Part shown: piece by piece, positions 33,092 through 63,691 of the stretch
Position numbering within the stretch: the stretch's first letter is position 1
Layout of the letters: every line of letters begins with the position of its first letter
From: Aliiglaciecola sp. M165
Lineage (GTDB): Bacteria > Pseudomonadota > Gammaproteobacteria > Enterobacterales > Alteromonadaceae
NCBI RefSeq assembly: GCF_007197995.1
Contig: NZ_VKKH01000003.1
Coordinates: 124,001 to 188,000 of the forward strand
Length of the DNA stretch: 64,000 nt
Reading direction: 5' to 3'
Program-made: the position numbers and the translations under genes
Notes under the pieces: generated by a model
Told to the model about the DNA's origin: nothing
Database searches by the model: none
What the model saw: the letters and a program-made list of their open reading frames with translations, nothing else

Positions 33092-34117
33092 ATGAAAGCA
33101 AAAGCGACCTCCTTTGATATAGCCCATTTAGCCGGCGTTTCTCAGTCCACGGTGTCTCGAGCATTGAGAGACAGCCCGTTGGTTAATCAGGAAACCCGGG
33201 ACAAAGTTAAAGCCATAGCGAAAGAATTAAATTACAAAGTCGATAAAAACGCCAGTAACCTTCGGCAACAGCAGAGCCGCACAATTGCGCTACTGCTTTT
33301 TGAAGATCCCACCACCGATGATTCGTTGATCAATCCATTTTTCCTATCCATGTTAGGCAGCATTACCAAAGCCAGTGCTCAAGCAGGATATGATCTGCTC
33401 ATTTCGTTCCAAAACATGAGTGATGATTGGCATGCAGATTTTGAAGACACAAACAAAGCCGATGGGATCATTTTGTTGGGTTATGGTGATTTTGTCGATT
33501 ATCGAGATAAATTGACCCAACTTGAAGAGCAAGAAACCCATTTTGTTCGCTGGGGAGCGGAAGATAAAGACCACCCTGGAGTCTCTATTGGATGTGACAA
33601 TTATCAAGGCGGATTCGATATTACCGAACATCTCATTAAGTTAGGTAAAAAGCATTTTGCATTTATAGGCGGTGCAGACAATCATGCCCCCGAGTTTCAC
33701 GCTCGTTACCTGGGACATTGCGATGCGATTCACAAGCACAATTTGTCTGTCGATTCTGCTAACCAAATTGAAGCGATATCGACAGAAGAATCGGGTTATC
33801 AGGCGGCCGTCAGTTTAATGCGTCAAAAAACAAATGTTGACGCTATATTCTGTGCCAGCGATTTGATCGCAATTGGTGTCATGCAGGCCTTTCAAGACAA
33901 AGGATTGAATGTGCCAAATGATGTTGCAGTGGTAGGTTACGACAATATTCCCGTTGCACGTTTTACCAACCCAGCACTGACTACTGTGGCCCAAAATACT
34001 AGCCTTGCAGGTCAGTTGTTGGTCAACAGCTTGTTAAAATTGATTAATGGCGAAGAGGTTGCCCCTCAGTTGATGGCGGTGGATGTTGTTGTCAGAAAAT
34101 CTTGCGGTAGCGATTAA
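33092..34117 (+). CDS. LacI-family transcriptional regulator, probable maltodextrin repressor
   Basis: 341-residue regulator. The N-terminal helix-turn-helix is FDIAHLAGVSQSTVSRALRD (residues 9-28), with the hinge helix NASNLRQQQS near residue 53. The periplasmic-binding-protein-like effector domain follows, with late motifs AIFCASDLIAIGVMQAF and VVGYDNIPVARFTNP. It stands at the start of the glucan locus, divergent from glnS and convergent with the MFS transporter gene. It is the only DNA-binding regulator among the glucan genes in the window. It is therefore the natural candidate to bind the five TGNATACGTATNCA-type sites and act as a MalR-type repressor induced by a maltodextrin. Family is secure; ligand and targets are inferred. 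Confidence 0.9.
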   Translation: MKAKATSFDIAHLAGVSQSTVSRALRDSPLVNQETRDKVKAIAKELNYKVDKNASNLRQQQSRTIALLLFEDPTTDDSLINPFFLSMLGSITKASAQAGYDLLISFQNMSDDWHADFEDTNKADGIILLGYGDFVDYRDKLTQLEEQETHFVRWGAEDKDHPGVSIGCDNYQGGFDITEHLIKLGKKHFAFIGGADNHAPEFHARYLGHCDAIHKHNLSVDSANQIEAISTEESGYQAAVSLMRQKTNVDAIFCASDLIAIGVMQAFQDKGLNVPNDVAVVGYDNIPVARFTNPALTTVAQNTSLAGQLLVNSLLKLINGEEVAPQLMAVDVVVRKSCGSD

Positions 34118-39755: not shown

Positions 39756-39769
39756 TGCATACGTATTCA
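39756..39769. promoter_or_regulatory. Putative MalR operator between GH97 and halogenase-family genes
   Basis: Exact TGCATACGTATTCA, a near-palindrome with central CG. It lies 93 bp upstream of the GH97 gene and 122 bp upstream of the halogenase-family gene, so it can control both directions. An imperfect second element, AGGTC...GACCT, overlaps its right end at 39769-39784. Confidence 0.75.
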
Positions 39770-39890: not shown

Positions 39891-41384
39891 GTGAGTAAAA
39901 AGCCAGATCCGAAGATCATCATTTTAGGCGGTGGAACCGCAGGATGGATGACTGCCAACCTGCTTCAACATACCCTGAGTCAGCACGAATTCACTGTCAC
40001 CTTAATTGAGTCACCGGACATCGGTATTATTGGCGTGGGAGAAGGCTCTACCCCACATTTAAAAGTGTTCTTCGATACTCTAGGAATTGAGGAACAACAA
40101 TGGATGCCAAAATGCAATGCCACCTATAAAAACGGGATCACCTTCAAAGGCTGGTCTTTAGAACCGGGGTTTGAACACTACTTCCATCCATTCCCTTCTC
40201 GTCCAGATCGGCAAACCGCCGGAGGTTTTTTAATTAATAGCCTGTTACGTAGACAGGGTCACGATGTTGATCCCCATCCAAATCAGTACTTTTTGTCTGC
40301 CTATTTAGCCAAACATTTTAAACATCCCAAAACCCAAGCCAAATTCCCGCTTTCAATCAATTATGGCTATCATTTTGACTCCGCACTGCTGGGGGAATAC
40401 TTAAAACGTGTTGCAATAGACCGCGGTGTTAAACACATTGAAGCTAAAATTGATGAGGTTAAAACCCATTTATCCGGTGATATCCAGGCATTGATCGATG
40501 AAAATGGCCATAGCTACACCGCAGATTGGTTTGTCGATTGTAGTGGTTTTGCGGCAGTCTTATTACAAAAAACATTGGGCACGGAATTTGTTGAATACAA
40601 AGACAATCTCTTTAACGATGCGGCAGTTGCCATTCCCTCTGCAGCAACCAAACCGAGAAACGTAGAAACAATTTCAACGGCCATGTCGGCCGGATGGAGC
40701 TGGGATATCCCTCTCACCAACCGCACTGGCAATGGTTATGTTTACTCAACTCAATACATAGAACCTGAACAGGCAGAACTGGAGTTAAGAAGTAAGTTAG
40801 GATTGCTTGACGCAGAAGTACCGGTCAAACATCTTAAAATGCGCGTGGGATGTGCCAAACAACATTGGGTTAAAAACTGTCTCGCTGTGGGTTTATCACA
40901 GGGTTTTATTGAGCCTCTGGAAGCCACAGCATTGCATTTGGTTCTATATACAGTAGAGACTTTCATCAGCGCTTTTACCTCTGGTCAGTTTAGCAACCAA
41001 CACCAGGCAGAATTTAACCAGTTGATTTCGAGTCGTTTTGAAGGGATCCGGGATTATATTGTCTGTCATTACAAAGTGAATTCTCGTAACAAGGGAAATT
41101 ATTGGTTGGACAATGCAAACAATAAACATCTGTCAGATTCGTTGTTACACATTCTTGATTGTTGGGACAAAGGTGGCGATCTGACACAGGAAATCAATCG
41201 CCAAAATATCGGTCACTATTATCCTGCTGTGTCCTGGCACTGTTTGTTGGCAGGTTATGGCAGGTTCCCGCCTCTGGGCGCAAGTTCACCTGCCACACAC
41301 GACGTGAACATCGCTGAAATTCAGCATTTCATTCGACAATGTGCGCAGGGTTTTTTAGAACAAGGTATAGATGAACGTTGCTAA
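39891..41384 (+). CDS. Tryptophan-halogenase-family flavoprotein (copy 1)
   Basis: 497-residue FAD-dependent protein of the tryptophan halogenase family. The FAD motif GGGTAGWM is at residues 13-20. CNATYKNGITF carries Lys80, placed like the catalytic Lys79 of PrnA. GWSWDIPL is the family's WxWxIP-type motif near 269, and SQGFIEPLEATALHL carries the conserved glutamate near 341. The residues expected for halogenation are therefore kept, but the substrate is unknown and no flavin reductase gene is nearby. Start is GTG with AAGG somewhat far upstream (12 bases). It shares its promoter region and a MalR site with the GH97 operon. Its last 30 bp overlap the antisense DUF5989-like gene. Confidence 0.88.
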   Translation: MSKKPDPKIIILGGGTAGWMTANLLQHTLSQHEFTVTLIESPDIGIIGVGEGSTPHLKVFFDTLGIEEQQWMPKCNATYKNGITFKGWSLEPGFEHYFHPFPSRPDRQTAGGFLINSLLRRQGHDVDPHPNQYFLSAYLAKHFKHPKTQAKFPLSINYGYHFDSALLGEYLKRVAIDRGVKHIEAKIDEVKTHLSGDIQALIDENGHSYTADWFVDCSGFAAVLLQKTLGTEFVEYKDNLFNDAAVAIPSAATKPRNVETISTAMSAGWSWDIPLTNRTGNGYVYSTQYIEPEQAELELRSKLGLLDAEVPVKHLKMRVGCAKQHWVKNCLAVGLSQGFIEPLEATALHLVLYTVETFISAFTSGQFSNQHQAEFNQLISSRFEGIRDYIVCHYKVNSRNKGNYWLDNANNKHLSDSLLHILDCWDKGGDLTQEINRQNIGHYYPAVSWHCLLAGYGRFPPLGASSPATHDVNIAEIQHFIRQCAQGFLEQGIDERC

Positions 41385-41507
41385 AGAAGATTGTTGTGTC
41401 GCCACCACGAGGGCGCCCAACAGTGCCAGGACGACGACTATGGGTAACAACCAAATTTTTTTACGCACGCGTAAAAACGCCCAAAGATCTTGAATAAACT
41501 CCAGCAT
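41355..41507 (-). CDS. 50-residue DUF5989-like membrane protein
   Basis: A small gene easily missed for its length. It encodes MLEFIQDLWAFLRVRKKIW, then a single hydrophobic helix (about residues 20-38, LLPIVVVLALLGALVVAT), and ends in FIYTLF. This resembles the short DUF5989 proteins that I recall beside SxtJ-like and carbamoyltransferase genes. The ATG overlaps the stop of the SxtJ-like gene by one base (TAATG), so it is translationally coupled as the last gene of the carbamoyltransferase operon. Its 3' end overlaps the convergent halogenase-family gene by 30 bp. A basic RVRKK before the helix suggests the N-terminus faces the cytoplasm. Function unknown; probably a small subunit of a membrane assembly. 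Confidence 0.85.
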   Translation of the reverse strand: MLEFIQDLWAFLRVRKKIWLLPIVVVLALLGALVVATQQSSLATFIYTLF

Positions 41508-41926
41508 TAAAATGGGTCCTTTAAATTGGATTTGGTTTTGGACTTATCACTTGAAATCCAAAACGATGAGGTGTTTTTTACTTTGTTTTTGGACATAGCT
41601 GAATATTGTAATTTTCCAAAAATTCTAAGCAAAATGCCTATGGGTAAAATCAAACCATAAAATGCGATCCCAAGAATGATCCGCGTATTTAACCAGCCTA
41701 AGATCAACGCGATCCACATCCAGACACGATAAGGATAATACAAACCTGACGGATGAACGATGTAGAGAATCGCCAGTACGCCACTAAGCAACGCAGGCCA
41801 CCAAGGTATAATTTGCTCAAACACATAGGGTAAAAGTAACATGAAAACGGCAGGAAACACCCACATCATTGTGATGGCAAATGCTCTTAGGTTCTCATGA
41901 TCGTCTTTTTTTAATAAAATCAACAT
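41507..41926 (-). CDS. SxtJ-like small membrane protein
   Basis: 139-residue protein with about four hydrophobic segments: two adjoining near residues 17-60 (AITMMWVFPAVFMLLLPYVF, then PALLSGVLAILYIVHPSG) and two between 65 and 105 (WIALILGWLNTRIILGIAFY, GLILPIGILLRIFGKL). The tail is basic and soluble. It resembles the SxtJ family, which is repeatedly found next to carbamoyltransferases and whose function is unproven. It lies between the carbamoyltransferase gene (50 bp upstream) and the DUF5989-like gene (TAATG overlap). A perfect 12-bp palindrome, GTTACGCGTAAC, stands just before its start. Family call is by resemblance; the operon context supports it. Confidence 0.78.
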   Translation of the reverse strand: MLILLKKDDHENLRAFAITMMWVFPAVFMLLLPYVFEQIIPWWPALLSGVLAILYIVHPSGLYYPYRVWMWIALILGWLNTRIILGIAFYGLILPIGILLRIFGKLQYSAMSKNKVKNTSSFWISSDKSKTKSNLKDPF

Positions 41927-41976
41927 ACTTTATGTTACGCGTAACCAGACATTTCGTTTATATTTCATAGTGTTAG

Positions 41977-43872
41977 TTAATCCTTTTCAAACACTACCTG
42001 CTTTGCTTTTACAATGAGCTTTTGGTCTTGTTCAGCTTTAAACAGCATACAGTTTTCAAGCACTAGCATGTCCATTTCTGTTGCCAGAAAACACCTCAGC
42101 GCATCTTCTGGAGAGCAAACAGGCGGCTCGCCTCTTACATTAAAAGAAGTATTGATTAGCATGCCAGTGCCAGTCATTTGTTTAAATTCACTCAATAACC
42201 GATGGAATCTTGGATTGGTCTTTTGATCCACCGATTGTACCCGGGCAGAATAATCTACATGAGTGATCGCAGGGACTACAGATCGCGCTTCGTTCAACCG
42301 TTCTATACCAAAACGTAGAGCGCTATTGTTGTTATTGATTCGATGCTCAGATTTAACCTCGGCCACTAACAGCATGTATGGGCTTGCATGTTCTAGATCA
42401 AAATAGGTCTTTGAATCTTCTATTAGAACTGCAGGTGCAAAGGGTCGAAAGGACTCTCTTTGCTTTATCTTCAAATTCATTTGAGATTGCATCGTTTGGT
42501 TGCGAGGATCGCCAATAATTGAGCGGTTCCCTAACGCACGGGGGCCAAACTCCATTTTTCCCTGGAACCAGCCAATCACTTTTCCTTCATCTATGTATTT
42601 TGCCGTTTTTGCAAATAGCTCATCATCGTTTAGGTAAGAGTATGGTGCCCCCTTCTGTTTCAGTAATCCTTCGATTTCTGCATTCGTGTACTCTGTGCCC
42701 AGATACGCGCCCTGCATGGAGTCGGATGACTGGGTAGACACATCCCGGGGCTTTTCATAATATTCGTGCCAAGCTAACAATGCGGCCCCGAGTGATCCAC
42801 CGGCATCGCCTGCAGCAGGTTGGATCCAAATATCTTTAAACGGCCCTTCACGCAGTACACGCCCATTCGCGACACAATTTAAAGCAACACCACCTGCCAA
42901 ACACAAATACTCCATACCGGTCTGTTGATGAGCATACTTGGCTATCTTTAACACGATCTCTTCCGTGACAACCTGAATTGACCGCGCAAGATCCATTTCT
43001 CGTTGAGTGATTTGATCATCGGGTTGTTTCGCAGGCCCACCAAACAAAGCATCAAACTTTTTGTTAGTCATTCGATCACCCGCTGGATAATCGAAGTAAG
43101 ACATATCTAAAGCAAAACTGCCGTCTTCGTTTACGGTAATAAGATGATTGAATATGGTGTCCACATACTTGGGTTCACCATAAGGCGCTAACCCCATTAA
43201 CTTGTATTCGCCGGAATTAACCCGAAATCCACAATAGTAGGTAAATGCCGAATAGAGTAACCCTAATGAATGAGGAAACTGAATTTCCCACAGCGGAGTA
43301 AGTTGATTCTTTTCCCCCAACCACGCACTTGAGGTCGCCCATTCGCCAACACCATCAAGACATAACACCACAGCCTTTTCAAATGGACTGGGGAAAAACG
43401 CAGATGCCGCATGGGATTGATGATGCTCACTAAACAATAATTGCGGTAAGTTAGGACGCTTCTCGTATTTCTTCTCTTCGGCTATTGTCGTTTGATTTTT
43501 ATCTGCTCTTCCTTGATGGATGAGCGTGCGAAGCTCCTGCCGCAAAACACTTTTAAGATAGAGCTTTTCTTTGAGCCAAATGGGCATTGCGCGTAAAAAA
43601 GAGAGGAAGCCTGACGGCGCATGAGCAAGATAGGTTTCGAGTAAACGTTCAAACTTAAGCATAGGCTTGTCATAAAAAATGACTGCATCTATCTGCTCCA
43701 GTGTGCAGTTCGCACGTTCAAGGCAAAACAGGATCGCCTGAGCAGGAAAAGCGGGATCGTGTTTGACCCGCGAAAATCGTTCCTCTTGCGCTGCTGCAAC
43801 AATTTCACCGTCTACGACGATAGTGGCTGCGCTGTCATGATAGTAGGCTGAAATGCCAAGAATGATCGTCAT
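41977..43872 (-). CDS. O-carbamoyltransferase (NodU/CmcH/TobZ family)
   Basis: 631-residue enzyme that should transfer a carbamoyl group from carbamoyl phosphate, through carbamoyl-AMP, to a hydroxyl group. The N-terminal Kae1-like domain begins ILGISAYYHDSAATIVVDGE and has EERFSRVKHDPAFP, HHQSHAASAFFPSPF and LCLDGVGEWAT; the middle has LAGGVALNCVANGR and AAGDAGGSLGAAL. The C-terminal YrdC-like domain follows GKMEFGPRALGNRSI and includes NTSFNVRGEPPVCSP. The acceptor is unknown; relatives act on Nod factors, antibiotics and toxins. It heads an operon with SxtJ-like and DUF5989-like genes. A variant of the glucan operator lies 70 bp upstream, between it and the divergent SGNH-like gene. Confidence 0.93.
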   Translation of the reverse strand: MTIILGISAYYHDSAATIVVDGEIVAAAQEERFSRVKHDPAFPAQAILFCLERANCTLEQIDAVIFYDKPMLKFERLLETYLAHAPSGFLSFLRAMPIWLKEKLYLKSVLRQELRTLIHQGRADKNQTTIAEEKKYEKRPNLPQLLFSEHHQSHAASAFFPSPFEKAVVLCLDGVGEWATSSAWLGEKNQLTPLWEIQFPHSLGLLYSAFTYYCGFRVNSGEYKLMGLAPYGEPKYVDTIFNHLITVNEDGSFALDMSYFDYPAGDRMTNKKFDALFGGPAKQPDDQITQREMDLARSIQVVTEEIVLKIAKYAHQQTGMEYLCLAGGVALNCVANGRVLREGPFKDIWIQPAAGDAGGSLGAALLAWHEYYEKPRDVSTQSSDSMQGAYLGTEYTNAEIEGLLKQKGAPYSYLNDDELFAKTAKYIDEGKVIGWFQGKMEFGPRALGNRSIIGDPRNQTMQSQMNLKIKQRESFRPFAPAVLIEDSKTYFDLEHASPYMLLVAEVKSEHRINNNNSALRFGIERLNEARSVVPAITHVDYSARVQSVDQKTNPRFHRLLSEFKQMTGTGMLINTSFNVRGEPPVCSPEDALRCFLATEMDMLVLENCMLFKAEQDQKLIVKAKQVVFEKD

Positions 43873-43941
43873 ATATAAACCGCTACTTCTGTGACCTGTA
43901 TTTAACTAAGAAACGACAACTATTTCACGTAATCTTTACAT

Positions 43942-43955
43942 TGAATACGAATTCA
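43942..43955. promoter_or_regulatory. Putative MalR operator variant in the carbamoyltransferase/SGNH divergent promoter
   Basis: TGAATACGAATTCA keeps both TGAATAC and ATTCA arms of the operator and differs from the ideal palindrome TGAATACGTATTCA at one central position. It is centred between the two divergent starts, 70 bp from the carbamoyltransferase gene and 72 bp from the SGNH-like gene. Match is direct; function inferred. Confidence 0.55.
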
Positions 43956-44026
43956 ACCTTGAAGGCAATCATAGATTGGGTTAGGTTGATGAATTAACCA
44001 AATTAGCACGCCATCAAAGGTTTAAC

Positions 44027-45730
44027 ATGAAAGTCTGGCTGTTTCGTGCCATTGCCGTATTCATCCCTTTTCTTTTCTTTATATTGCTCGAATTAGGTCT
44101 TCGTTTCGCGGGTTATGGTCAGTCATATCCATTATTTATTCCTAACCCTGATGCGCCAGACTATTTGTTGCCTCGTCCTGACATCGTAAAACGCTATTTT
44201 CCAAACGCTTCGGACGTGCCTAGTGTAACCATAGAAGCAAACTTTTTTCGCGCTGAAAAACCCAAGAATGGATTGCGCTTTTTCGTTCAAGGCGGATCAA
44301 CGGCCGCCGGGTTTCCTTACGGGTTAGGTGCCTCAATTGCCGGCATGTTAGATCACCGACTGAAACAGTCTTTCCCAGACAATTACGTCGAGATCATCAA
44401 TACCTCACTAGCGGCGGTCAACTCCTACACCAATTTGGATTTGGTGGATGAAATTATCGCGCAGCAGCCTGATGCAGTATTAATTTATATGGGACACAAC
44501 GAATTTCTTGGCATCATGGGAGTGGGTTCAAACTACACAGCCGCGAGCTCTGCGGCAACCACATTACTCTTTTTAAAATTAAAAGAGTACAGAACCTTTC
44601 AGTTAATACAAAGTCTTTACCATAGCCTGAAAGTCGCTTTTATAGAGGAAAAAAACCAGGAATCAGAAACGACGGTACAAGCTAATTTTGCAGCGTCTCG
44701 AACCTTTATGGCTAAGGTTGCTAAACATAAAACGATCCCCCAGGACAGTAAGCTATTTAGCGCTGGCGTGGCGCAATTTGAACAAAATCTGAGCTTGATT
44801 TTGGAAAAATATCAAGGTGCTGGCATTCCCGTGTTCATCTCGACACTCGTCAGCAATCTGCTCGACCAACGGCCATTTTCCAGCTTGCCAACACCCTCAA
44901 ACTTGGAAAATGCATTACGGCAACTTAGCGAACAAATTACAACACAATCCGTTGATAACGTGCTGCTTGAGCAAACCGCTAAAAGTGTCTCAATCACAGA
45001 TAGTGCAGATGCCCACTTTCAGCTAGGGAGAATATTTAATGCTTTGGGCGATTCAACAAAAGCCAAATTGTTTTTAACCCAAGCTAAGGATCTCGACTTG
45101 CTGCGATTTAGAGCGCCCGAAGCGATCAACTCAATAATCCGAAATCATGCGCTGCGCTATGGCGCCATATTAGTCAACGCGCAACAACGTTTTGAACAGC
45201 AATCCCCTCTCGGTGTGGTGGGTAACAATTTAATGCTCGAGCATTTACACCCAAACGTAGAAGGATATTTTTTATTGTCTGACGCCTTTTATCAGTCAAT
45301 GAGCATGTCCAAAGCTATATCATTTAAACAAGAAATCACGCCTAATGTTGCATGGAAACAACGGATGTTGCTGCAAGCGGAAGAATATTATGGTTTTGCC
45401 AAAGCGCTCCAACTCAAGTCTGATTATCCTTTTGTCGATGAGCCTCAACTATTAAAACTTCCTGCGCCACAAAATTGGCAACAACAACTTGGAAAAGACT
45501 TGTTCGACAAAAAGCTGAATTGGTTAAGTATGGTTCAACACGCACAAACTAATTATCAAGCAGAGCGTAATTCCTCACAAGTCATTAAAACCCAGCTTAT
45601 GTTAGCTGATGCCTTACCTTACGAGGCTAGATTAAATGTGCAAGCCGCTGATATGTTGATGAAAACTGGCCAAACCGCTCGGGCTAGCACATACATACAA
45701 CGCTCTAAATGGGCCGAAGAAGATAAATAA
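44027..45730 (+). CDS. Membrane-anchored SGNH-hydrolase-like protein with TPR-like segment (paralogue 1)
   Basis: 567-residue protein. A single N-terminal membrane helix (about 6-28) leads to an extracytoplasmic SGNH/GDSL-type domain. FVQGGSTAAGFPYG puts a serine at 91 in the nucleophile position. VLIYMGHNEFLGIMG carries block III Asn158. LEHLHPNVEGYFLLSDA provides the block V histidine near 406-408 without the usual Asp two or three residues ahead. A TPR-like helical pair sits inside the fold (about 326-355), and the C-terminal 150 residues are helical. Such proteins may be esterases or acyl-group modifiers of surface glycans. AAAGG precedes the ATG. It is divergent from the carbamoyltransferase gene over a MalR-like site and is tail-to-tail with its paralogue. 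Confidence 0.8.
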   Translation: MKVWLFRAIAVFIPFLFFILLELGLRFAGYGQSYPLFIPNPDAPDYLLPRPDIVKRYFPNASDVPSVTIEANFFRAEKPKNGLRFFVQGGSTAAGFPYGLGASIAGMLDHRLKQSFPDNYVEIINTSLAAVNSYTNLDLVDEIIAQQPDAVLIYMGHNEFLGIMGVGSNYTAASSAATTLLFLKLKEYRTFQLIQSLYHSLKVAFIEEKNQESETTVQANFAASRTFMAKVAKHKTIPQDSKLFSAGVAQFEQNLSLILEKYQGAGIPVFISTLVSNLLDQRPFSSLPTPSNLENALRQLSEQITTQSVDNVLLEQTAKSVSITDSADAHFQLGRIFNALGDSTKAKLFLTQAKDLDLLRFRAPEAINSIIRNHALRYGAILVNAQQRFEQQSPLGVVGNNLMLEHLHPNVEGYFLLSDAFYQSMSMSKAISFKQEITPNVAWKQRMLLQAEEYYGFAKALQLKSDYPFVDEPQLLKLPAPQNWQQQLGKDLFDKKLNWLSMVQHAQTNYQAERNSSQVIKTQLMLADALPYEARLNVQAADMLMKTGQTARASTYIQRSKWAEEDK

Positions 45731-45759
45731 AACAATTGAATTAGAGCAGCAGTTTATCA

Positions 45760-47574
45760 TTAATGATCTTTAACCATTTGAATAAATTGATCGACCTGTG
45801 GGTGATCTGGTTGCTGCCGTTTGACTTGCTCTAACTGCATTAAGCTTCGCGCTTTGTTACCCAACTGAAAATAATTTTGCGCGAGGGATAATCGTGCTTG
45901 CAGGTTTTCAGGGTTAAGGTTTACAGCCCGCAATAGATGATGAGTAGACAAAGGCAGATTGTTAATCTGCTTGTAAAGCATACCCGCAATAAACGTAAGT
46001 TGCGTGTTATTTGGCAAAGCATCTGCCATTAAACCAGCAACCTTTGCGGCTTCAGGGAGGTTTCTATTTTCCTGATATGCCCTCAATAAATCTTGATTGA
46101 TTGTTAACCAATCTGCACCATCAACTCGCTTTTTCAACGCAGACGACTCTAAAGAGTCGGATGGTGGCAAAATGACATTTTTCTTTTCAGTGGTAAACGG
46201 ATAATCTGACACCAACCTTTCAACTTTAAAGTTTCCGTAGAGTTTATCGGCAAGCGTTACAGGCTGTTCTTGCCAAGCACCTTGTAAATCGTTATTTGCC
46301 GGTTCTGGCAATAAATCATTCAGGATTAGTGCATCAACGTAGGCGTTGGCGAGAATAAAATATCCTCGCACACTGGGGTGTAAATGCTCCAGCATATGCT
46401 TGCTACCAATCACTCCCTCTGGTGAATCGGCGACAAAAGCCTCTTGAACACCCGCCAAATAAACGTTTGGGCGATCACTCAAGGCTTCAATAATTCGGTT
46501 AAATTCAGACGGCGCTCTAAAGCGCAAGGTGTCGTGATCCTTAGCGTCGATAAAGGCTTGTTTGGCTTTGTTTTCCTGCCCCGACATTAATAGCCCGTGC
46601 CCGAGTTTAAAATAGTCTGCAGCTAAATTATTCGACAGGTCATTGTCAATCACATGCCTCAAATTCGATATCAATTCCCGATGTTGTGTCGAACCCATCA
46701 AGGTAATTTCTTGTATTTCTTCGCCCGCAAGTGCGTTAATGGCTGAAAAAGGAATGAGATCTTTTTCATTGCTGACCAAATCGCCGATCACTACTGGTAT
46801 CCCAGCATCTTCATATTTGTCTAAGATAAGAGAAAGATTGCCTTCGAATTGCGCAATACCCGCATGAAAAATATCACTGTTAAGTGGAATATCTTTATCT
46901 TTGGCAATTCTGGCCATTAGAGTTCTGTCGTTGAGTTGATCCGATTCGGTATTTTGTTCCACGCTAGCAGCAAAACCGTAATAAAGTGACTCAACCATTC
47001 GATACAATTGCCAGTCTTTTAGTGCCAAATAAAGTAAATTAGCACTGCGCCCTCCTCTGGAGGCATACGCTGACCCCACCCCCATGATTCCCAGGTATTC
47101 ATTGTGACCAGCGTATATGAGCACTAAATCAGGCTCAATTTGAATAATTTCATCGACAAAATCCAACAAAGTGTAGGAATTAACCGATGCCATTGCTGTA
47201 TTGATAATTTCAATATCTTTGTTTGGATAAAGGCGTTTAAAACGCTGTTGCAACATGCCAGAAAGTGAGCCCCAACGGCCATAAGGAAAACCCGCAGCTG
47301 TTGAGCCACCCTGTACAACAATTCGAAGGCTATCGGGCGATTTAGATTGCCTAAAAAACTGCGTGTCGGGACTGACATTGGGAGCCAAATTCGCTGAAGG
47401 AAAAAAACGCTGAATAACCTTTTCATTTGGCATTAAATATCCTGCCTGCCCTGTTGCTTCTATAAACAAAGGTTGAGGCTCACGAAATTCAATTATCCTT
47501 AACACCCCTTCGATTGATAAAAGCAAAACAAAGGGGATCAGCAATGCAATGAAATAGAATGACAATTTCTTCAT
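45760..47574 (-). CDS. Membrane-anchored SGNH-hydrolase-like protein with C-terminal TPRs (paralogue 2)
   Basis: 604-residue paralogue of the preceding protein. The N-terminal membrane helix (about 7-28), Ser91 in VVQGGSTAAGFPYGR and Asn158 in LIYAGHNEYLGIMGVGSAY fall at the same residue numbers. HMLEHLHPSVRGYFILANA supplies the His. It has a longer C-terminus with clear TPR motifs: ALPNNTQLTFIAGMLYKQIN, AVNLNPENLQARLSLAQNY and FQLGNKARSLMQLEQV. The TPRs suggest a protein or glycan-assembly partner. It is convergent with paralogue 1 (29 bp apart) and its own upstream region has no glucan operator, so the two paralogues may be regulated differently. Activity is not established. Confidence 0.8.
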   Translation of the reverse strand: MKKLSFYFIALLIPFVLLLSIEGVLRIIEFREPQPLFIEATGQAGYLMPNEKVIQRFFPSANLAPNVSPDTQFFRQSKSPDSLRIVVQGGSTAAGFPYGRWGSLSGMLQQRFKRLYPNKDIEIINTAMASVNSYTLLDFVDEIIQIEPDLVLIYAGHNEYLGIMGVGSAYASRGGRSANLLYLALKDWQLYRMVESLYYGFAASVEQNTESDQLNDRTLMARIAKDKDIPLNSDIFHAGIAQFEGNLSLILDKYEDAGIPVVIGDLVSNEKDLIPFSAINALAGEEIQEITLMGSTQHRELISNLRHVIDNDLSNNLAADYFKLGHGLLMSGQENKAKQAFIDAKDHDTLRFRAPSEFNRIIEALSDRPNVYLAGVQEAFVADSPEGVIGSKHMLEHLHPSVRGYFILANAYVDALILNDLLPEPANNDLQGAWQEQPVTLADKLYGNFKVERLVSDYPFTTEKKNVILPPSDSLESSALKKRVDGADWLTINQDLLRAYQENRNLPEAAKVAGLMADALPNNTQLTFIAGMLYKQINNLPLSTHHLLRAVNLNPENLQARLSLAQNYFQLGNKARSLMQLEQVKRQQPDHPQVDQFIQMVKDH

Positions 47575-55277: not shown

Positions 55278-55310
55278 TGCATACGTATTCAATGCATAAA
55301 AATGCATCAA
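55278..55310 (-). promoter_or_regulatory. Putative MalR operator overlapping the TonB receptor promoter
   Basis: The exact 14-mer TGCATACGTATTCA occupies 55278-55291. On the minus strand TTGATG (complement of 55305-55310) and TACGTA (complement of 55282-55287) are 17 bp apart. The operator would then cover a candidate -10 box, as expected of a repressor site. The -10 is a poor match to TATAAT, so the promoter part is tentative. Confidence 0.65.
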
Positions 55311-57833: not shown

Positions 57834-58693
57834 TCTGAAAACAGCCACAACACGGTTTGTTCAAATTCACTTGCCCAAAAACCTTCATTGTGTTTTGCGC
57901 CTTGTACAATTTTACTTCGCAGTTTTGTGCTGGGGTGCCCTTGAGACTCGATTAATGACACCATTTTTTCCATTCCACTGACCATATCTCCTCCCTCTTC
58001 GGTGCCAACTAAAAAGTCTAATTTGGCGGATTTAGGTAACGGATTGTCTTGGGTAAATGTAAAGACATCTTGTGAGTACCAATAAGAAGGCGAATATATC
58101 CCAGCTTTACTAAATACATCAGGTCGGGCATAGATACCGTAATGAGAAATGAGTCCGCCCATTGAACTGCCCATAATGCCGGTATTTTTAATATCAGCTT
58201 TAGTGCGATAATGAGTATCGACGTAAGGTTTAACGACATCAACGATAAAGCTGAGGTATTGTTGTCCTTCGCCCTTACCAAAATCATCATTGTCCCACGC
58301 ACTCAATTCCGTCATGCGCTTGTCTTCGCCGTTGTCTATTCCTATCACGATAAGTTTTAAACCATTGGTTTCAGACAACTTATTCAATGTTTCATCCACA
58401 CGCCATTCGCCCGCATATGAGGTCGCGTCATCAAACAGGTTCTGCGCGTCGTGCATATAAAGCACTGGATAATAATCAGTTTCAGAATCGTAATTTGGCG
58501 GAAGGTATATTCGAACCTTACGTTTTCGATCCAAGCCTGGCATATCGAAAACACTGTCTAGCACAATAACATTCGGCGCGGCACTAGGTGACCTTTGCTC
58601 TGCGATGTTAGCCTGTTGGCTTTTCTCACAAGCCGATAACAACAAAACAATGGCAGTGTAAATAGCAAATCGATTCAAACGGTTAATCATCAT
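57830..58693 (-). CDS. Putative esterase lipoprotein, alpha/beta hydrolase (esterase D/enterochelin-esterase-like)
   Basis: 287-residue alpha/beta hydrolase. The signal peptide ends in lipobox LSAC (about 19-22). KRKVRIYLPPNYDSETDYYPVLYMHDAQNLFDD near residue 60 and the nucleophile elbow GSSMGG (Ser177) place it in the putative-esterase family (PF00756 type), and GAKHNEGFW near residue 265 holds the likely catalytic His. Its start overlaps the GH13 gene by 11 bp and its stop overlaps the GH31 start by 4 bp, so all three are translationally coupled. This implies it acts on the same substrate as the two glucosidases, perhaps removing acyl groups that block glucan cleavage. The natural ester is unknown. 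Confidence 0.85.
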   Translation of the reverse strand: MMINRLNRFAIYTAIVLLLSACEKSQQANIAEQRSPSAAPNVIVLDSVFDMPGLDRKRKVRIYLPPNYDSETDYYPVLYMHDAQNLFDDATSYAGEWRVDETLNKLSETNGLKLIVIGIDNGEDKRMTELSAWDNDDFGKGEGQQYLSFIVDVVKPYVDTHYRTKADIKNTGIMGSSMGGLISHYGIYARPDVFSKAGIYSPSYWYSQDVFTFTQDNPLPKSAKLDFLVGTEEGGDMVSGMEKMVSLIESQGHPSTKLRSKIVQGAKHNEGFWASEFEQTVLWLFSE

Positions 58694-60630: not shown

Positions 60631-60662
60631 TGCATACGTATTCAGCGCATTGATTGCGCCAA
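60631..60662 (-). promoter_or_regulatory. Putative MalR operator overlapping the GH13-esterase-GH31 promoter
   Basis: The exact 14-mer TGCATACGTATTCA is at 60631-60644. On the minus strand TTGGCG (complement of 60657-60662) and TACGTA (complement of 60635-60640) are 16 bp apart, so the site would cover a candidate -10. The same geometry is seen at the TonB receptor promoter. Confidence 0.65.
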
Positions 60663-60702: not shown

Positions 60703-62199
60703 TTATTTCAAGCTATCCAGATTATGTTGATGACTGGAAAAGTTCAGTGAACAACGACGATTAAACTCTTCAATACCATTTTCTATGAAGTGATCACCGG
60801 TTCCTGGCTGGTTGTTGGCGATAGGCGGAAATGCGCCATAACCTGCCAATAGGCAATGCCAAGATATGGTGTCAAAGTGCGTATTCAGCTTTTGTCGATC
60901 AATTTCTGCACCCAAGTCTTCGCGTTTGTACCAGACATTAAGTATTTGAATTAAAGATTCTGATAAATGTGTATTATCTCGATTTGCCCGCCAATAATCG
61001 CTGTCATCGCGTGTATTCACTTTGTAGTGAGCCACAATATAGTCTCGTACTCGTTCGAAACGTTCTGCAATTTTCTGGTTGAACTCAGCTTGATGTCGAT
61101 GACTAAATTGGCCTTTTTCAAAATCACCCATAAACATTTCGATGCAGACCTGGACCAAATGCAAGGCCGTGGCTTCCAATGGCTCAATAAACCCTTGTGA
61201 TAATCCTAAGCCCAAACAGTTGTTGGCCCAGTGCTTTTCAAGCTGACCAACGCGCATTTTTAAATGGCGACAAGATTCTGGGTCGTTTTCAGTACCAATA
61301 TGCCTGCGTAGTTCCGTCTCAGCTTGGTCTTGATTGATAAAATCAGAGCTGTACACATAACCATTGCCAAACCGATTGGTTAACGGGATCTTCCATGCCC
61401 AACCGTTTGATAATGCAGTGGCGCGTGTTTCAACTGGAATAACGTCTTGCATGGGTGTGGGCATCACCACCGCAGAATCATTGAACAAATTCTGTTTGAA
61501 ACTATTAAATTTTACGTTGAGCGTTTTTTGCATTAACACCGAGGCAAAACCACTGCAATCGACAAAAAAGTCCGCGTCAATCTCGTCACCATTTTCAGTG
61601 ATCAGCGCTGCGATATCGCCGTTTGCATGCTGTTTTACTGATGACACTTTCGCTTGAATATGCTCAACATCTAGAGTCTCGGCGTGTTGAGCTAAAAATT
61701 GTCCCAGCAAGTATGAGTCAAAATGGTATCCATACTCCATAATCATCGGAAAATGTTCTGGCGCAAGGGGACCTTTTACCTGTTTCGCCAACACACCGTT
61801 AAGCAGAAATTCTTCAGGGTTGACGTTAGTATCAAGCCCCAATCGTCGAGTTCTACAATTTACGAAAAAAGACTTCTGAGTGAAGGTGTCGGTTTGACAG
61901 ATGAACGGATGGCTATAATCCTCTATTCCAGATTTTGGACTCCAACCAGCAAACCTAATGTTGACTTTGTAAGTTGCATTACACTGCGGCATCCATTGAG
62001 ATTCTGAAATATTTAACATTTCGAAAAAACGCTTTAGCGTTGGAGTGGATCCTTCCCCTACCCCCACAATACCGATTTCAGGGGATTCAACCAAGGTGAC
62101 ATGAACGTTTTTATCGGCCCATTTATTAGCGAATAAATTTGCGGCCATCCAACCTGCGGTGCCACCACCCAAAATTACTATCCGTTTAAACTGCTTCAA
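60703..62199 (-). CDS. Tryptophan-halogenase-family flavoprotein (copy 2)
   Basis: 498-residue flavoprotein, clearly the closest relative of copy 1 at 39891: both share GGGTAGWM, GVGEGSTPxLKxFF, QWMPQCNATYK-type (MPKCNATYK in copy 1) and SQGFIEPLEATALHL. The lysine after CNATY and the glutamate in FIEPLE match the catalytic pair of PrnA-type halogenases, and NGWAWKIPL is the conserved WxWxIP region. The start is TTG with AAGG 7 bases upstream, placed one base after the stop of copy 3, so the two are tightly coupled. They follow a TonB receptor at the right edge. The substrate is unknown, and no flavin reductase is encoded in the window. Confidence 0.88.
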   Translation of the reverse strand: MKQFKRIVILGGGTAGWMAANLFANKWADKNVHVTLVESPEIGIVGVGEGSTPTLKRFFEMLNISESQWMPQCNATYKVNIRFAGWSPKSGIEDYSHPFICQTDTFTQKSFFVNCRTRRLGLDTNVNPEEFLLNGVLAKQVKGPLAPEHFPMIMEYGYHFDSYLLGQFLAQHAETLDVEHIQAKVSSVKQHANGDIAALITENGDEIDADFFVDCSGFASVLMQKTLNVKFNSFKQNLFNDSAVVMPTPMQDVIPVETRATALSNGWAWKIPLTNRFGNGYVYSSDFINQDQAETELRRHIGTENDPESCRHLKMRVGQLEKHWANNCLGLGLSQGFIEPLEATALHLVQVCIEMFMGDFEKGQFSHRHQAEFNQKIAERFERVRDYIVAHYKVNTRDDSDYWRANRDNTHLSESLIQILNVWYKREDLGAEIDRQKLNTHFDTISWHCLLAGYGAFPPIANNQPGTGDHFIENGIEEFNRRCSLNFSSHQHNLDSLK

Positions 62200-62200
62200 A

Positions 62201-63691
62201 CTACACCTTACAATAATGCTTTAGAAACTCATCATGAGTAGGCAACTGAGGAATCGGTTGTTGCTTAACATTTTTAACCGTATTTAGCATACTAAACAGA
62301 CGCTCTTTGTCCAGATTGTTTGCAATAGGATGGTAATCCTTCGGCTCAATACCCTGCCCCAACATCACTTGTAACCAAGAACTCTCCAAAAACAGATCGT
62401 TCTGCTCTCTGAATAGCTTCCCTGTTTCGCGGAACAATTCGATTTTGTGCGTCAGACTATCTGGGATTTGCATGTCGCGCATATTACGCCAAAACTGACT
62501 GTCATCTCGTTCGTTGACGTGGTAATGCAAAATCAGAAAATCTCTGATTTGTTCATATTCCAATTCAGATTGCTGGTTGTATTCGTTAACGTTAACTGGG
62601 TCGATGCCATTGTGTGGGAACAAGTGGATTAATCGCACTATCCCAGATTGAATAAGATGAATACTAGTTGACTCTAAAGGCTCCAAGAATCCACTAGACA
62701 ATCCCACCGAGACCACATTTTTATTCCATTGTTTGCGGCGCCTACCGGTTTTAAAGTGAATCACTCTAGGTTCATCAAGGGCTTGTGTATCAAGGTTTCC
62801 CATCAATGTGCTGGCAGCTTCATCATCCGAACAGTGATCACTACAATATACCAATCCATTGCCATTTCGGTGCTGCAAAGGTATACGCCATTGCCAACCG
62901 GCTTTGTGAGCAATGGAACGGGTGTAAGGTAAGGTCTTTTCTAGTCGCTCAGATGGCACTGCAACGGCTCGGTCACAGGGCAACCAATGACTCCAATCTT
63001 CATACCCAGTGCCCAAGGTTTTCTGGATGAGCAGACCACGAAAACCTGAGCAATCAATAAACAAGTCACCAGAAATGATTTTGCCGTCATTTAATTGTAA
63101 TTGTGTCACAAATCCTGTTTGCGGATCTTGTTTTACATGTTCTACCAGGCCTTCCGTGCGGACCACTCCCATTTTCTCACTGAACGTGCGTAGAAATTTA
63201 GCATATAAAGACGCGTCAAAATGATAGGCATAAGGCAATTCTAAAATGGGATCTTTACTGTTGATATGCGCAAATTTACCTTCTAAACAGCATAAATAAT
63301 TTAAATCGTAATCCCACAGGTTAGAATCAAAACCCAGTGTTTTGGCTCTTTTCCAGAAGTGATGAAATTGACAAAACGCCATGCTTTTGCCTGGCGCACC
63401 GAAGGTATGAAAATAGCCCTCTCCCTGCACTCGCCAGTTTTCAAATTTAATGGCCAATTTAAGGGTAGCGTTTGTTTCTCGTAGAAACTCTGCTTCGTTA
63501 ATCCCCAAGACATTGTTGACCAGGCGAATTGGAGGAATGGTGGCTTCCCCAACGCCAACAGTGCCAATACTTTCAGACTCGACCAGCTCGATTTCAACGG
63601 GGCCACCGACAACTTTTTTAAGCAATGCAGCAGACAACCATCCGGCCGTTCCGCCACCAACCACTACAACTTTTTTAATGGCTTTGTTCAT
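62201..63691 (-). CDS. Tryptophan-halogenase-family flavoprotein (copy 3, divergent)
   Basis: 496-residue member of the same family but of a different subgroup. It has VVGGGTAGWLSAALLKKVVG at the N-terminus and GVGEATIPPIRLVNNVLGI where copies 1 and 2 have GVGEGSTP. NATLKLAIKFENW carries the lysine in the catalytic position. AGWQWRIPLQHRNGNGLVYCS and VGLSSGFLEPLESTSIHLIQSG keep the WxWxIP motif and the EPLES glutamate seen in true halogenases. It lies 85 bp after the TonB receptor stop, behind a terminator-like hairpin, and 1 bp before copy 2. Function unknown beyond the family. Confidence 0.88.
   Translation of the reverse strand: MNKAIKKVVVVGGGTAGWLSAALLKKVVGGPVEIELVESESIGTVGVGEATIPPIRLVNNVLGINEAEFLRETNATLKLAIKFENWRVQGEGYFHTFGAPGKSMAFCQFHHFWKRAKTLGFDSNLWDYDLNYLCCLEGKFAHINSKDPILELPYAYHFDASLYAKFLRTFSEKMGVVRTEGLVEHVKQDPQTGFVTQLQLNDGKIISGDLFIDCSGFRGLLIQKTLGTGYEDWSHWLPCDRAVAVPSERLEKTLPYTRSIAHKAGWQWRIPLQHRNGNGLVYCSDHCSDDEAASTLMGNLDTQALDEPRVIHFKTGRRRKQWNKNVVSVGLSSGFLEPLESTSIHLIQSGIVRLIHLFPHNGIDPVNVNEYNQQSELEYEQIRDFLILHYHVNERDDSQFWRNMRDMQIPDSLTHKIELFRETGKLFREQNDLFLESSWLQVMLGQGIEPKDYHPIANNLDKERLFSMLNTVKNVKQQPIPQLPTHDEFLKHYCKV

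What the first reader, a model, noticed from the sequence alone, without database searches (positions are those of the whole stretch)
41355..47574. Carbamoyltransferase/SxtJ-like/DUF5989-like/twin SGNH cluster inside a starch locus
Five adjacent genes with no obvious part in glucan breakdown sit in the middle of the glucan locus: an O-carbamoyltransferase, two small membrane proteins and two membrane-anchored SGNH-like proteins with TPRs. Together they look like machinery that carbamoylates and acylates or deacylates a surface or exported glycan. A variant of the glucan operator lies exactly in the shared divergent promoter, suggesting it is induced with maltodextrin use. I know of no described system pairing these parts with starch utilisation. 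Seen: gene order, motifs, operator variant. Inferred: common function.
Basis: partly seen in the sequence, partly recalled or inferred. Interest (0 to 1): 0.75.

Follow-up and report, generated by a model that had tools for sequence, protein, structure and literature searches.

The report
Glucan-locus carbamoyltransferase–SGNH accessory cassette
Many starch-eating marine bacteria carry a unit of four or five linked genes, apparently controlled with the starch genes, that looks built to handle carbamoyl groups in the cell envelope, possibly on the sugar chains themselves; what it does is not known.

Summary
The five genes are real: DUF5989, SxtJ, an O-carbamoyltransferase (CTase) and two anchored SGNH/TPR proteins, with catalytic residues kept. 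They behave as a unit: of 78 relatives 12 have the SGNH genes, 11 of these match SxtJ; in 10 of 10 such genomes of the family the unit lies among alpha-glucan genes; one same-genus genome has the locus without it. SGNH genes come with a CTase in 9 of 9 genomes of an even sample (53 of 369 overall; 4 of 4 counting only genomes not used for the profile). The glucan operator is within 2 mismatches in 21 of 49 CTase/SGNH promoters (0.8 expected).

Against: in that sample 7 of 9 SGNH genomes show no glucan gene nearby; the glucan link belongs to the window-type clade (57 of 65 gammaproteobacterial loci).

Beyond the finding: a distant SGNH paralogue lies beside GH16 (laminarinase-type) genes in 5 of 5 genomes, each with one CTase. 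So one CTase may serve several glucan loci.

Best reading: an envelope O-carbamoylation system tied to glucan use. Carbamoylation, direction and substrate are inferred. The gene make-up is known from saxitoxin and suomilide clusters; I found no report linking it to glucan loci.

The parts
41355..41507 (-). DUF5989 (SxtK-size) single-helix membrane protein, 50 aa, N-in/C-out predicted, tail of the QQS...FIYTLF type
   Evidence: Pfam PF19451 E 2.6e-24; 4 K/R before and 0 after the helix; tail type
41507..41926 (-). SxtJ-family membrane protein, 139 aa, all-helical; its stop shares one base with the DUF5989 start
   Evidence: Pfam PF19588 E 9.4e-10; AlphaFold2 pLDDT 80, pTM 0.54; overlap read
41977..43872 (-). 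O-carbamoyltransferase (class III, Kae1-like + YrdC-like), 631 aa; one match in the genome
   Evidence: Pfam; one match in own genome; equivalents of GdmN H27, H133, H137, D156, D333 invariant in 13 homologues
43942..43955 (.). Glucan-operator variant TGAATACGAATTCA in the divergent CTase/SGNH1 promoter
   Evidence: conserved in relatives
44027..45730 (+). SGNH1: N-terminally anchored SGNH domain with helical/TPR stretches, 567 aa
   Evidence: clade of 55 rows, SH-aLRT 100
45760..47574 (-). SGNH2: paralogue of SGNH1, 604 aa
   Evidence: clade of 53 rows, SH-aLRT 97
39756..39769 (.). Glucan operator TGCATACGTATTCA (GH97/halogenase-like promoter)
55278..55291 (.). Glucan operator upstream of the TonB receptor-pullulanase genes
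60631..60644 (.). Glucan operator upstream of the GH13-esterase-GH31 genes
33092..34117 (+). LacI-family regulator, presumed reader of the operator (binding not tested)
   Evidence: Pfam PF00356/PF13377
47683..52146 (-). Pullulanase next to the cassette (flank; frequent neighbour)
   Evidence: TIGR02103 E 3e-298; in 45 of 65 gammaproteobacterial loci

Best explanation
The five genes are one functional unit, an envelope O-carbamoylation system attached to glucan-utilisation loci. The cytosolic CTase makes carbamoyl-AMP from carbamoyl phosphate and ATP (inferred from family membership and intact residues). SxtJ and DUF5989 hold it at the inner membrane, with the DUF5989 tail reaching the periplasm (inferred from topology). 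The anchored SGNH/TPR proteins work in the periplasm as the carbamoyl-handling end: either they pass the group to glucan oligosaccharides or another envelope glycan, in the manner of PatA/PatB-type O-acetylation, or they take it off again, as was proposed for SxtL. One CTase can serve several glucan loci; the SGNH protein, and sometimes DUF5989, is the locus-specific part. In the window the unit is under the locus's LacI-type operator. Shown: the unit, its co-occurrence, the glucan neighbourhood of the window-type clade, operator conservation, one CTase with SGNH genes in two loci. Inferred: carbamoylation, direction, substrate, LacI control.
For: Unit: SGNH genes in 12 of 78 relatives, 11 of these with SxtJ at E<=0.001; the twelfth, G014, has CTase, SxtJ and DUF5989 by BLAST. 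Same-genus G007 has LacI-MFS-neopullulanase-halogenase-pullulanase-TonB receptor with no cassette. Dependence: 9 of 9 SGNH genomes have the CTase against 53 of 369, P 1.4e-8; five of the nine gave rows to the profile, and for the four others it is 4 of 4 against 48 of 364, P 2.7e-4. Of 27 loci without a CTase in the fetched stretch I checked 13 genomes (7 gammaproteobacterial, 6 other); 13 of 13 have one elsewhere. In 4 of these (L104, L108, L114, L119) CTase+SxtJ lie elsewhere without DUF5989 within 1.5 kb, while a QQS-type DUF5989 sits with the SGNH genes in the glucan locus. Glucan link: 57 of 65 gammaproteobacterial loci have an alpha-glucan gene in reach (41 of 43 that are >=19 kb), against 0 of 34 loci fetched by DUF5989; 12 of 12 SGNH genomes have a pullulanase, not always the neighbour, against 46 of 78 (P 9e-4). 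Shared supply: the SGNH paralogue sits beside GH16 in 5 of 5 genomes, each with one CTase. Regulation: 21 of 49 promoters, 0.79 expected. Catalysis. Distances: CTase-SGNH1 r 0.776, CTase-SGNH2 0.778, CTase-pullulanase 0.463 over 36 loci.
Confidence: 0.42

Rival explanations
1. The CTase acts in the cytosol on a small molecule or sugar that is then exported, and the SGNH proteins are periplasmic decarbamoylases or esterases, as proposed for SxtL; the product is a signal, inhibitor or protected sugar made when glucan is eaten.
For: GdmN acts on a small molecule (passages of PMC9633730). [quoted passage not shown] Nearest folds of SGNH1 are esterases. Many relatives of the module are not in glucan loci.
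Against: I saw no biosynthetic or export gene kept with the cassette among the families scanned; unscanned neighbours remain. SGNH proteins are locus-specific while the CTase is shared between alpha- and beta-glucan loci, which fits a glucan-facing SGNH better than one exported product.
Confidence: 0.27
2. The SGNH proteins are ordinary glycan esterases that strip acyl groups from imported glucans, and the CTase module is a neighbour with another job.
For: SGNH fold nearest to esterases, acetylxylan esterases among them; glucan-locus position.
Against: SGNH genomes also have the CTase (9 of 9, or 4 of 4 without profile rows; 13 of 13 checked), and DUF5989 travels with either partner. A plain esterase would not need it.
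Confidence: 0.15
3. Linked by descent only: the unit was inserted once near a glucan operon and has stayed by inertia or hitch-hiking.
For: The two SGNH clades largely follow the taxa; GC content of the unit equals its surroundings.
Against: Gene order around the unit is reshuffled between genera while the unit stays; it is absent cleanly in G007; the operator is kept in part of the loci; a distant paralogue is in GH16 loci.
Confidence: 0.1

Closest known systems
sxtI-sxtJ-sxtK-sxtL group of saxitoxin clusters, and sxtJ,K,L of a suomilide cluster
   Same: Carbamoyltransferase, SxtJ and a 165-bp gene (sxtK) listed in a row, then a GDSL gene (passages of PMC2679770 and PMC10157211); Pfam names PF19588 after SxtJ.
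   Different: Here in a glucan locus, with N-terminally anchored TPR-bearing SGNH proteins, mostly two, mostly divergent from the CTase operon, and under a glucan operator in part of the loci. No direct sequence comparison with SxtI/SxtL was made.
Class III O-carbamoyltransferases TobZ, GdmN, NovN
   Same: Homology over both domains (E down to 1.4e-113) and the same iron-site and base residues as GdmN.
   Different: Those act on antibiotics (recalled for TobZ and NovN); whether they have SxtJ/DUF5989/SGNH partners was not searched.
PatA/PatB, AlgI/AlgJ/AlgX-type O-acetylation (recalled)
   Different: No MBOAT family seen among the flanking genes scanned; carbamoyl rather than acetyl supply is expected.
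Alpha-glucan and laminarin utilisation loci of Alteromonadales
   Same: LacI/MFS/neopullulanase/pullulanase/TonB receptor, and GH16/SapC/cupin/halogenase arrangements.
   Different: I found no description with the CTase-SxtJ-DUF5989-SGNH unit (searches; listings only).

Membership tests
Class III O-carbamoyltransferase | Kae1-like N-domain and YrdC-like C-domain | tested here: met
   PF02543 2e-105 and PF16861 4.5e-72; PDB homologues
Class III O-carbamoyltransferase | Iron ligands and general base of GdmN (H133, H137, D156, D333, H27) | tested here: met
   Align to H150, H154, D173, D356, H12, invariant in 13 homologues
Class III O-carbamoyltransferase | Carbamoyl transfer to a hydroxyl | not testable with these tools
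   Needs assay
sxtIJKL-like group | CTase + SxtJ family + SxtK-size protein adjacent | tested here: met
   SxtJ is a Pfam match; DUF5989=SxtK equivalence rests on size and position, not on sequence
sxtIJKL-like group | GDSL protein homologous to SxtL | not tested
   SxtL sequence deliberately not fetched (toxin cluster)
SGNH hydrolase superfamily | SGNH fold with Ser, Gly/Asn oxyanion and acid-x-x-His | tested here: met
   G89, S91, G156, N158, E405, H408 invariant in 22 and 49 sequences, N132 nearly so; fold matches. The acid is Glu, not the usual Asp (usual form recalled)
PatB/AlgX-type O-acyltransferase | Transfer rather than hydrolysis; MBOAT partner | tested here: inconclusive
Alpha-glucan utilisation locus member | Co-location with glucan genes across families | tested here: met
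   57 of 65 gammaproteobacterial loci of the window-type search; 10 of 10 genomes of the family with SGNH genes, the window included. Not met for more distant SGNH relatives (7 of 9 in the class sample)
Alpha-glucan utilisation locus member | Shared regulation | tested here: inconclusive
   Operator within 2 mismatches in 21 of 49 promoters; binding and induction not tested

The most novel reading that the evidence does not exclude
A trans-membrane carbamoyl relay for glucan feeding: one cytosolic CTase with SxtJ charges the membrane side, DUF5989 carries or gates the group across, and locus-specific periplasmic SGNH/TPR transferases put it on oligosaccharides of the particular glucan being eaten (alpha-glucan, laminarin), for example to hold or mark them in the periplasm. 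This would be the carbamoyl counterpart of MBOAT/SGNH O-acetylation and would give the SxtJ and DUF5989 families a role.
Probability: 0.2. Interest if true: 0.85.

Novelty: new variant of a known kind. Interest (0 to 1): 0.6.

Why it matters
Glucan utilisation loci are well studied, yet a conserved unit in many gammaproteobacterial ones has, as far as my searches show, no assigned role. If it carbamoylates sugars in the envelope, that would be a new chemistry in polysaccharide feeding and would give a role to DUF5989 and SxtJ. That one CTase appears to serve SGNH proteins in both starch and laminarin-type loci makes the question directly testable in marine strains.

Tried and rejected
Considered and set aside. 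(1) A chance cluster: rejected by co-occurrence. (2) Recent foreign insertion: GC of the unit (0.376-0.451) is near that of the locus genes (0.42-0.463). (3) GH13 gene at 58683 as a fixed partner: in 25 of 78 relatives, 8 of the 12 cassette genomes, so not specific. (4) Conserved secreted partners in non-glucan loci (L178, L187, L194, L238, L241): 7 proteins gave no Pfam match. (5) PDB sequence search with the SGNH profile: the best 60 of 375 matches fall on TPR stretches; with SxtJ nothing. (6) No non-gammaproteobacterial locus has a CTase in reach and 3 of 14 have a glucan gene, so the glucan link is firm only in Gammaproteobacteria of the window-type clade. (7) A Foldseek search proper was not obtained; only the VIA-align second look. 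No fold search was made with the SxtJ model. (8) Operator patterns were written after reading the sequence. (9) Literature searches gave listings only, plus passages of three papers; the library lacks most subscription journals.

Counts to read with care: 'glucan in reach' depends on stretch length (3.6-21.8 kb) and a score cut of 50; the 79 named loci are the best of 360 relatives; profile A4 held SGNH proteins from four genomes of the class sample that I had met beside CTase modules (G158, G205, G243, G277), hence the second figure; E cut-offs differ between (1e-40; 1e-180); the QQS/QGS sets were picked in different ways and are related by descent; the tree has 146 different proteins in 151 rows; '5 of 5' for GH16 counts the proteins closest to the G010 paralogue, and one other long SGNH protein (L238 9036-11120) has no GH16 beside it.
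Full report
OBSERVATION. The five ORFs lie where the finding puts them and carry the stated families: DUF5989, SxtJ, a full-length O-carbamoyltransferase and two SGNH/TPR proteins with an N-terminal hydrophobic stretch. SxtJ and DUF5989 overlap by one base. The flanks are a glucan locus. TGCATACGTATTCA lies at 39756, 55278 and 60631, with a variant, TGAATACGAATTCA, at 43942 in the CTase/SGNH1 promoter. In the own genome TGMATACGWATKCA matches exactly at 7 places, 5 of them in one 27 kb stretch covering this locus; with one mismatch there are 39 strand-matches against 7 for the reversed control pattern.

ONE UNIT. Of 78 relatives (9 of the genus with the window's own, 38 others of the family, 31 of the order), 12 have SGNH relatives and 12 have SxtJ matches; 11 are shared. 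The exceptions: G014, whose SxtJ is found by BLAST, and G074, whose 9.6 kb contig shows CTase-SxtJ-DUF5989 beside an MFS gene and a TonB-receptor-like gene and whose genome gave no SGNH match. Most have two SGNH genes in the cassette; G002 has one. The same-genus genome G007 has the window's LacI-MFS-neopullulanase-halogenase-pullulanase-TonB receptor order without the five genes (and without GH97); in the 30 kb fetched from G005 and from G008 only TonB receptor-pullulanase-LacI are seen. Pairwise distances over 36 loci agree better between CTase and the SGNH proteins (0.776, 0.778; SGNH1-SGNH2 0.835) than between CTase and pullulanase (0.463), although SxtJ pairs are lower (0.61-0.70) and SGNH1-pullulanase reaches 0.678.

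GLUCAN NEIGHBOURHOOD. In the other 9 family genomes with the unit, all 9 have alpha-glucan genes in the 20 kb fetched. Outside the family, G065 has only a weak GH13-like match, G074 only transport genes, and G062 (two contigs) none. A scan of named genomes gave 372 pattern stretches and 360 relatives, of which the best 80 became 79 loci. Of 65 gammaproteobacterial loci 57 have an alpha-glucan gene in reach, 52 the CTase, 52 SxtJ, 56 DUF5989 and 52 at least two SGNH genes; of 43 that are 19 kb or longer, 41 have glucan genes and 40 the CTase. Of 14 other loci (Rhodothermota, Bacteroidota, Myxococcota, Spirochaetota) 3 have glucan genes (GH13) and none a CTase in reach (Pfam checks). In an order sample of 325 genomes DUF5989 passes the cut-off at 10 places in 9 genomes: 6 places have a clear alpha-glucan hydrolase in reach (G000, G006, G010, G012, G694, G533), G065 a weak one, G010's second place a GH16 gene, and G074 and G723 none.

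CONTRAST. 34 loci fetched by DUF5989 from 229 evenly drawn Gammaproteobacteria (own genome left out) have CTase in 30 (one a fragment) and SxtJ in 30, but no alpha-glucan hydrolase in any; one (L175) has a GH16 gene (contigs 3.7-20 kb). SGNH-like genes lie within about 1.5 kb of the module in 8 of these 34 (L171, L172, L175, L177, L178, L182, L187, L194; L182 is a weak match). So the CTase-SxtJ-DUF5989 module is widespread and mostly not glucan-linked, and the glucan link belongs to the window-type SGNH clade. The same shows in the class sample: of 9 SGNH genomes the window lies among alpha-glucan genes, G243 beside GH16, and 7 have no glucan gene in the stretches fetched.

DEPENDENCE OF SGNH ON THE CTase. 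In 369 evenly drawn Gammaproteobacteria SGNH-TPR (E<=1e-40) occurs in 9 and the CTase (E<=1e-180) in 53; all 9 have both (P 1.4e-8, or 9.7e-8 without the own genome). Five of the nine had given rows to the SGNH profile, four of them because I met them beside CTase modules; for the remaining four it is 4 of 4 against 48 of 364, P 2.7e-4. Of the 27 named loci with no CTase in the fetched stretch I took 13 genomes; all 13 have one elsewhere, at 659-1020 bits (no background rate for the 6 that are not Gammaproteobacteria). In four of them (L104, L108, L114, L119) the distant CTase has SxtJ but no DUF5989 beside it (1.5 kb flanks), and DUF5989 lies with the SGNH genes in the glucan locus.

DUF5989 TAIL. 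The part after the membrane helix reads QQS in 57 of 58 SGNH-selected loci and in 0 of 34 DUF5989-selected ones, most of which read QGS; the exception among the 58 is the Rhodothermales locus L130. The non-glucan SGNH-TPR loci L178, L187, L194 and L238 have QGS; L262, with no glycosidase in reach, has QQS. The charge pattern puts this tail in the periplasm. This is what one expects if the tail meets the SGNH protein or its substrate, but shared descent could also produce it.

A SECOND GLUCAN. A distant SGNH paralogue (about 700 aa) was found in 4 of the 78 relatives, all of them cassette genomes (P 3.5e-4), and in G243. In all five it lies beside a GH16 gene; the G010 one has laminarinases and beta-1,3-glucanases as best PDB relatives. 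SapC, cupin and halogenase-like genes are there too. Ser91, Asn158, Glu405 and His408 equivalents are kept. Each of the five genomes has exactly one CTase at E<=1e-10: in the alpha-glucan cassette in four, in the GH16 locus in G243. In G010 the GH16 locus has its own QQS-type DUF5989; in the other three relatives no DUF5989 was seen there. A shared CTase with locus-specific SGNH proteins is why I prefer the SGNH protein, not the CTase, as the part that meets the glucan.

REGULATION. TGNATACGTATNCA is within 1 mismatch in 14 of 49 CTase/SGNH promoters (0.05 expected) and within 2 in 21 (0.79 expected) (single-base shuffles, window included). It is within 2 mismatches in none of 13 Rheinheimera, Arsukibacterium and Alishewanella loci. 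LacI binding and induction are untested.

READING. The unit is real, moves as one piece and, in the window's clade, belongs with glucan feeding. The chemistry most likely is O-carbamoylation, because the CTase residues are intact and SGNH presence goes with it. Whether the SGNH proteins add or remove the group, and from what, is open. The gene make-up matches the row listed in saxitoxin papers (passages only); no direct comparison was made. I rate it a new variant of a known kind.

Noticed in passing
window 39891-41384, 60703-62199, 62201-63691: Three tryptophan-halogenase-family (PF04820) genes in one glucan locus; homologues also sit in the GH16 loci with SapC and cupin genes. Role in glycan loci not looked into.
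   Followed up: partly
L259 10001-16060 (G010), L263-L265, L175: SGNH paralogue beside GH16 genes, in G010 with a second DUF5989.
   Followed up: yes
L262 5865-12071 (G723): SGNH-CTase-SxtJ-DUF5989 in a row next to a TonB receptor and a TPR-sulfotransferase gene, no glycosidase seen: possibly a third context.
   Followed up: partly
L178, L187, L194, L238, L241: Stand-alone SGNH / SxtJ-DUF5989-CTase sets with no glucan gene nearby, with predicted proteins around them that gave no Pfam match.
   Followed up: partly
L179 1672-8109: A 2145-aa ORF near a CTase-SxtJ-DUF5989 module, perhaps a multi-domain biosynthetic enzyme; not scanned.
   Followed up: no
   Followed up: no
own genome C12:442275 and C29:142897: Two exact glucan-operator-like matches outside this locus; neighbouring genes not looked at.
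   Followed up: no
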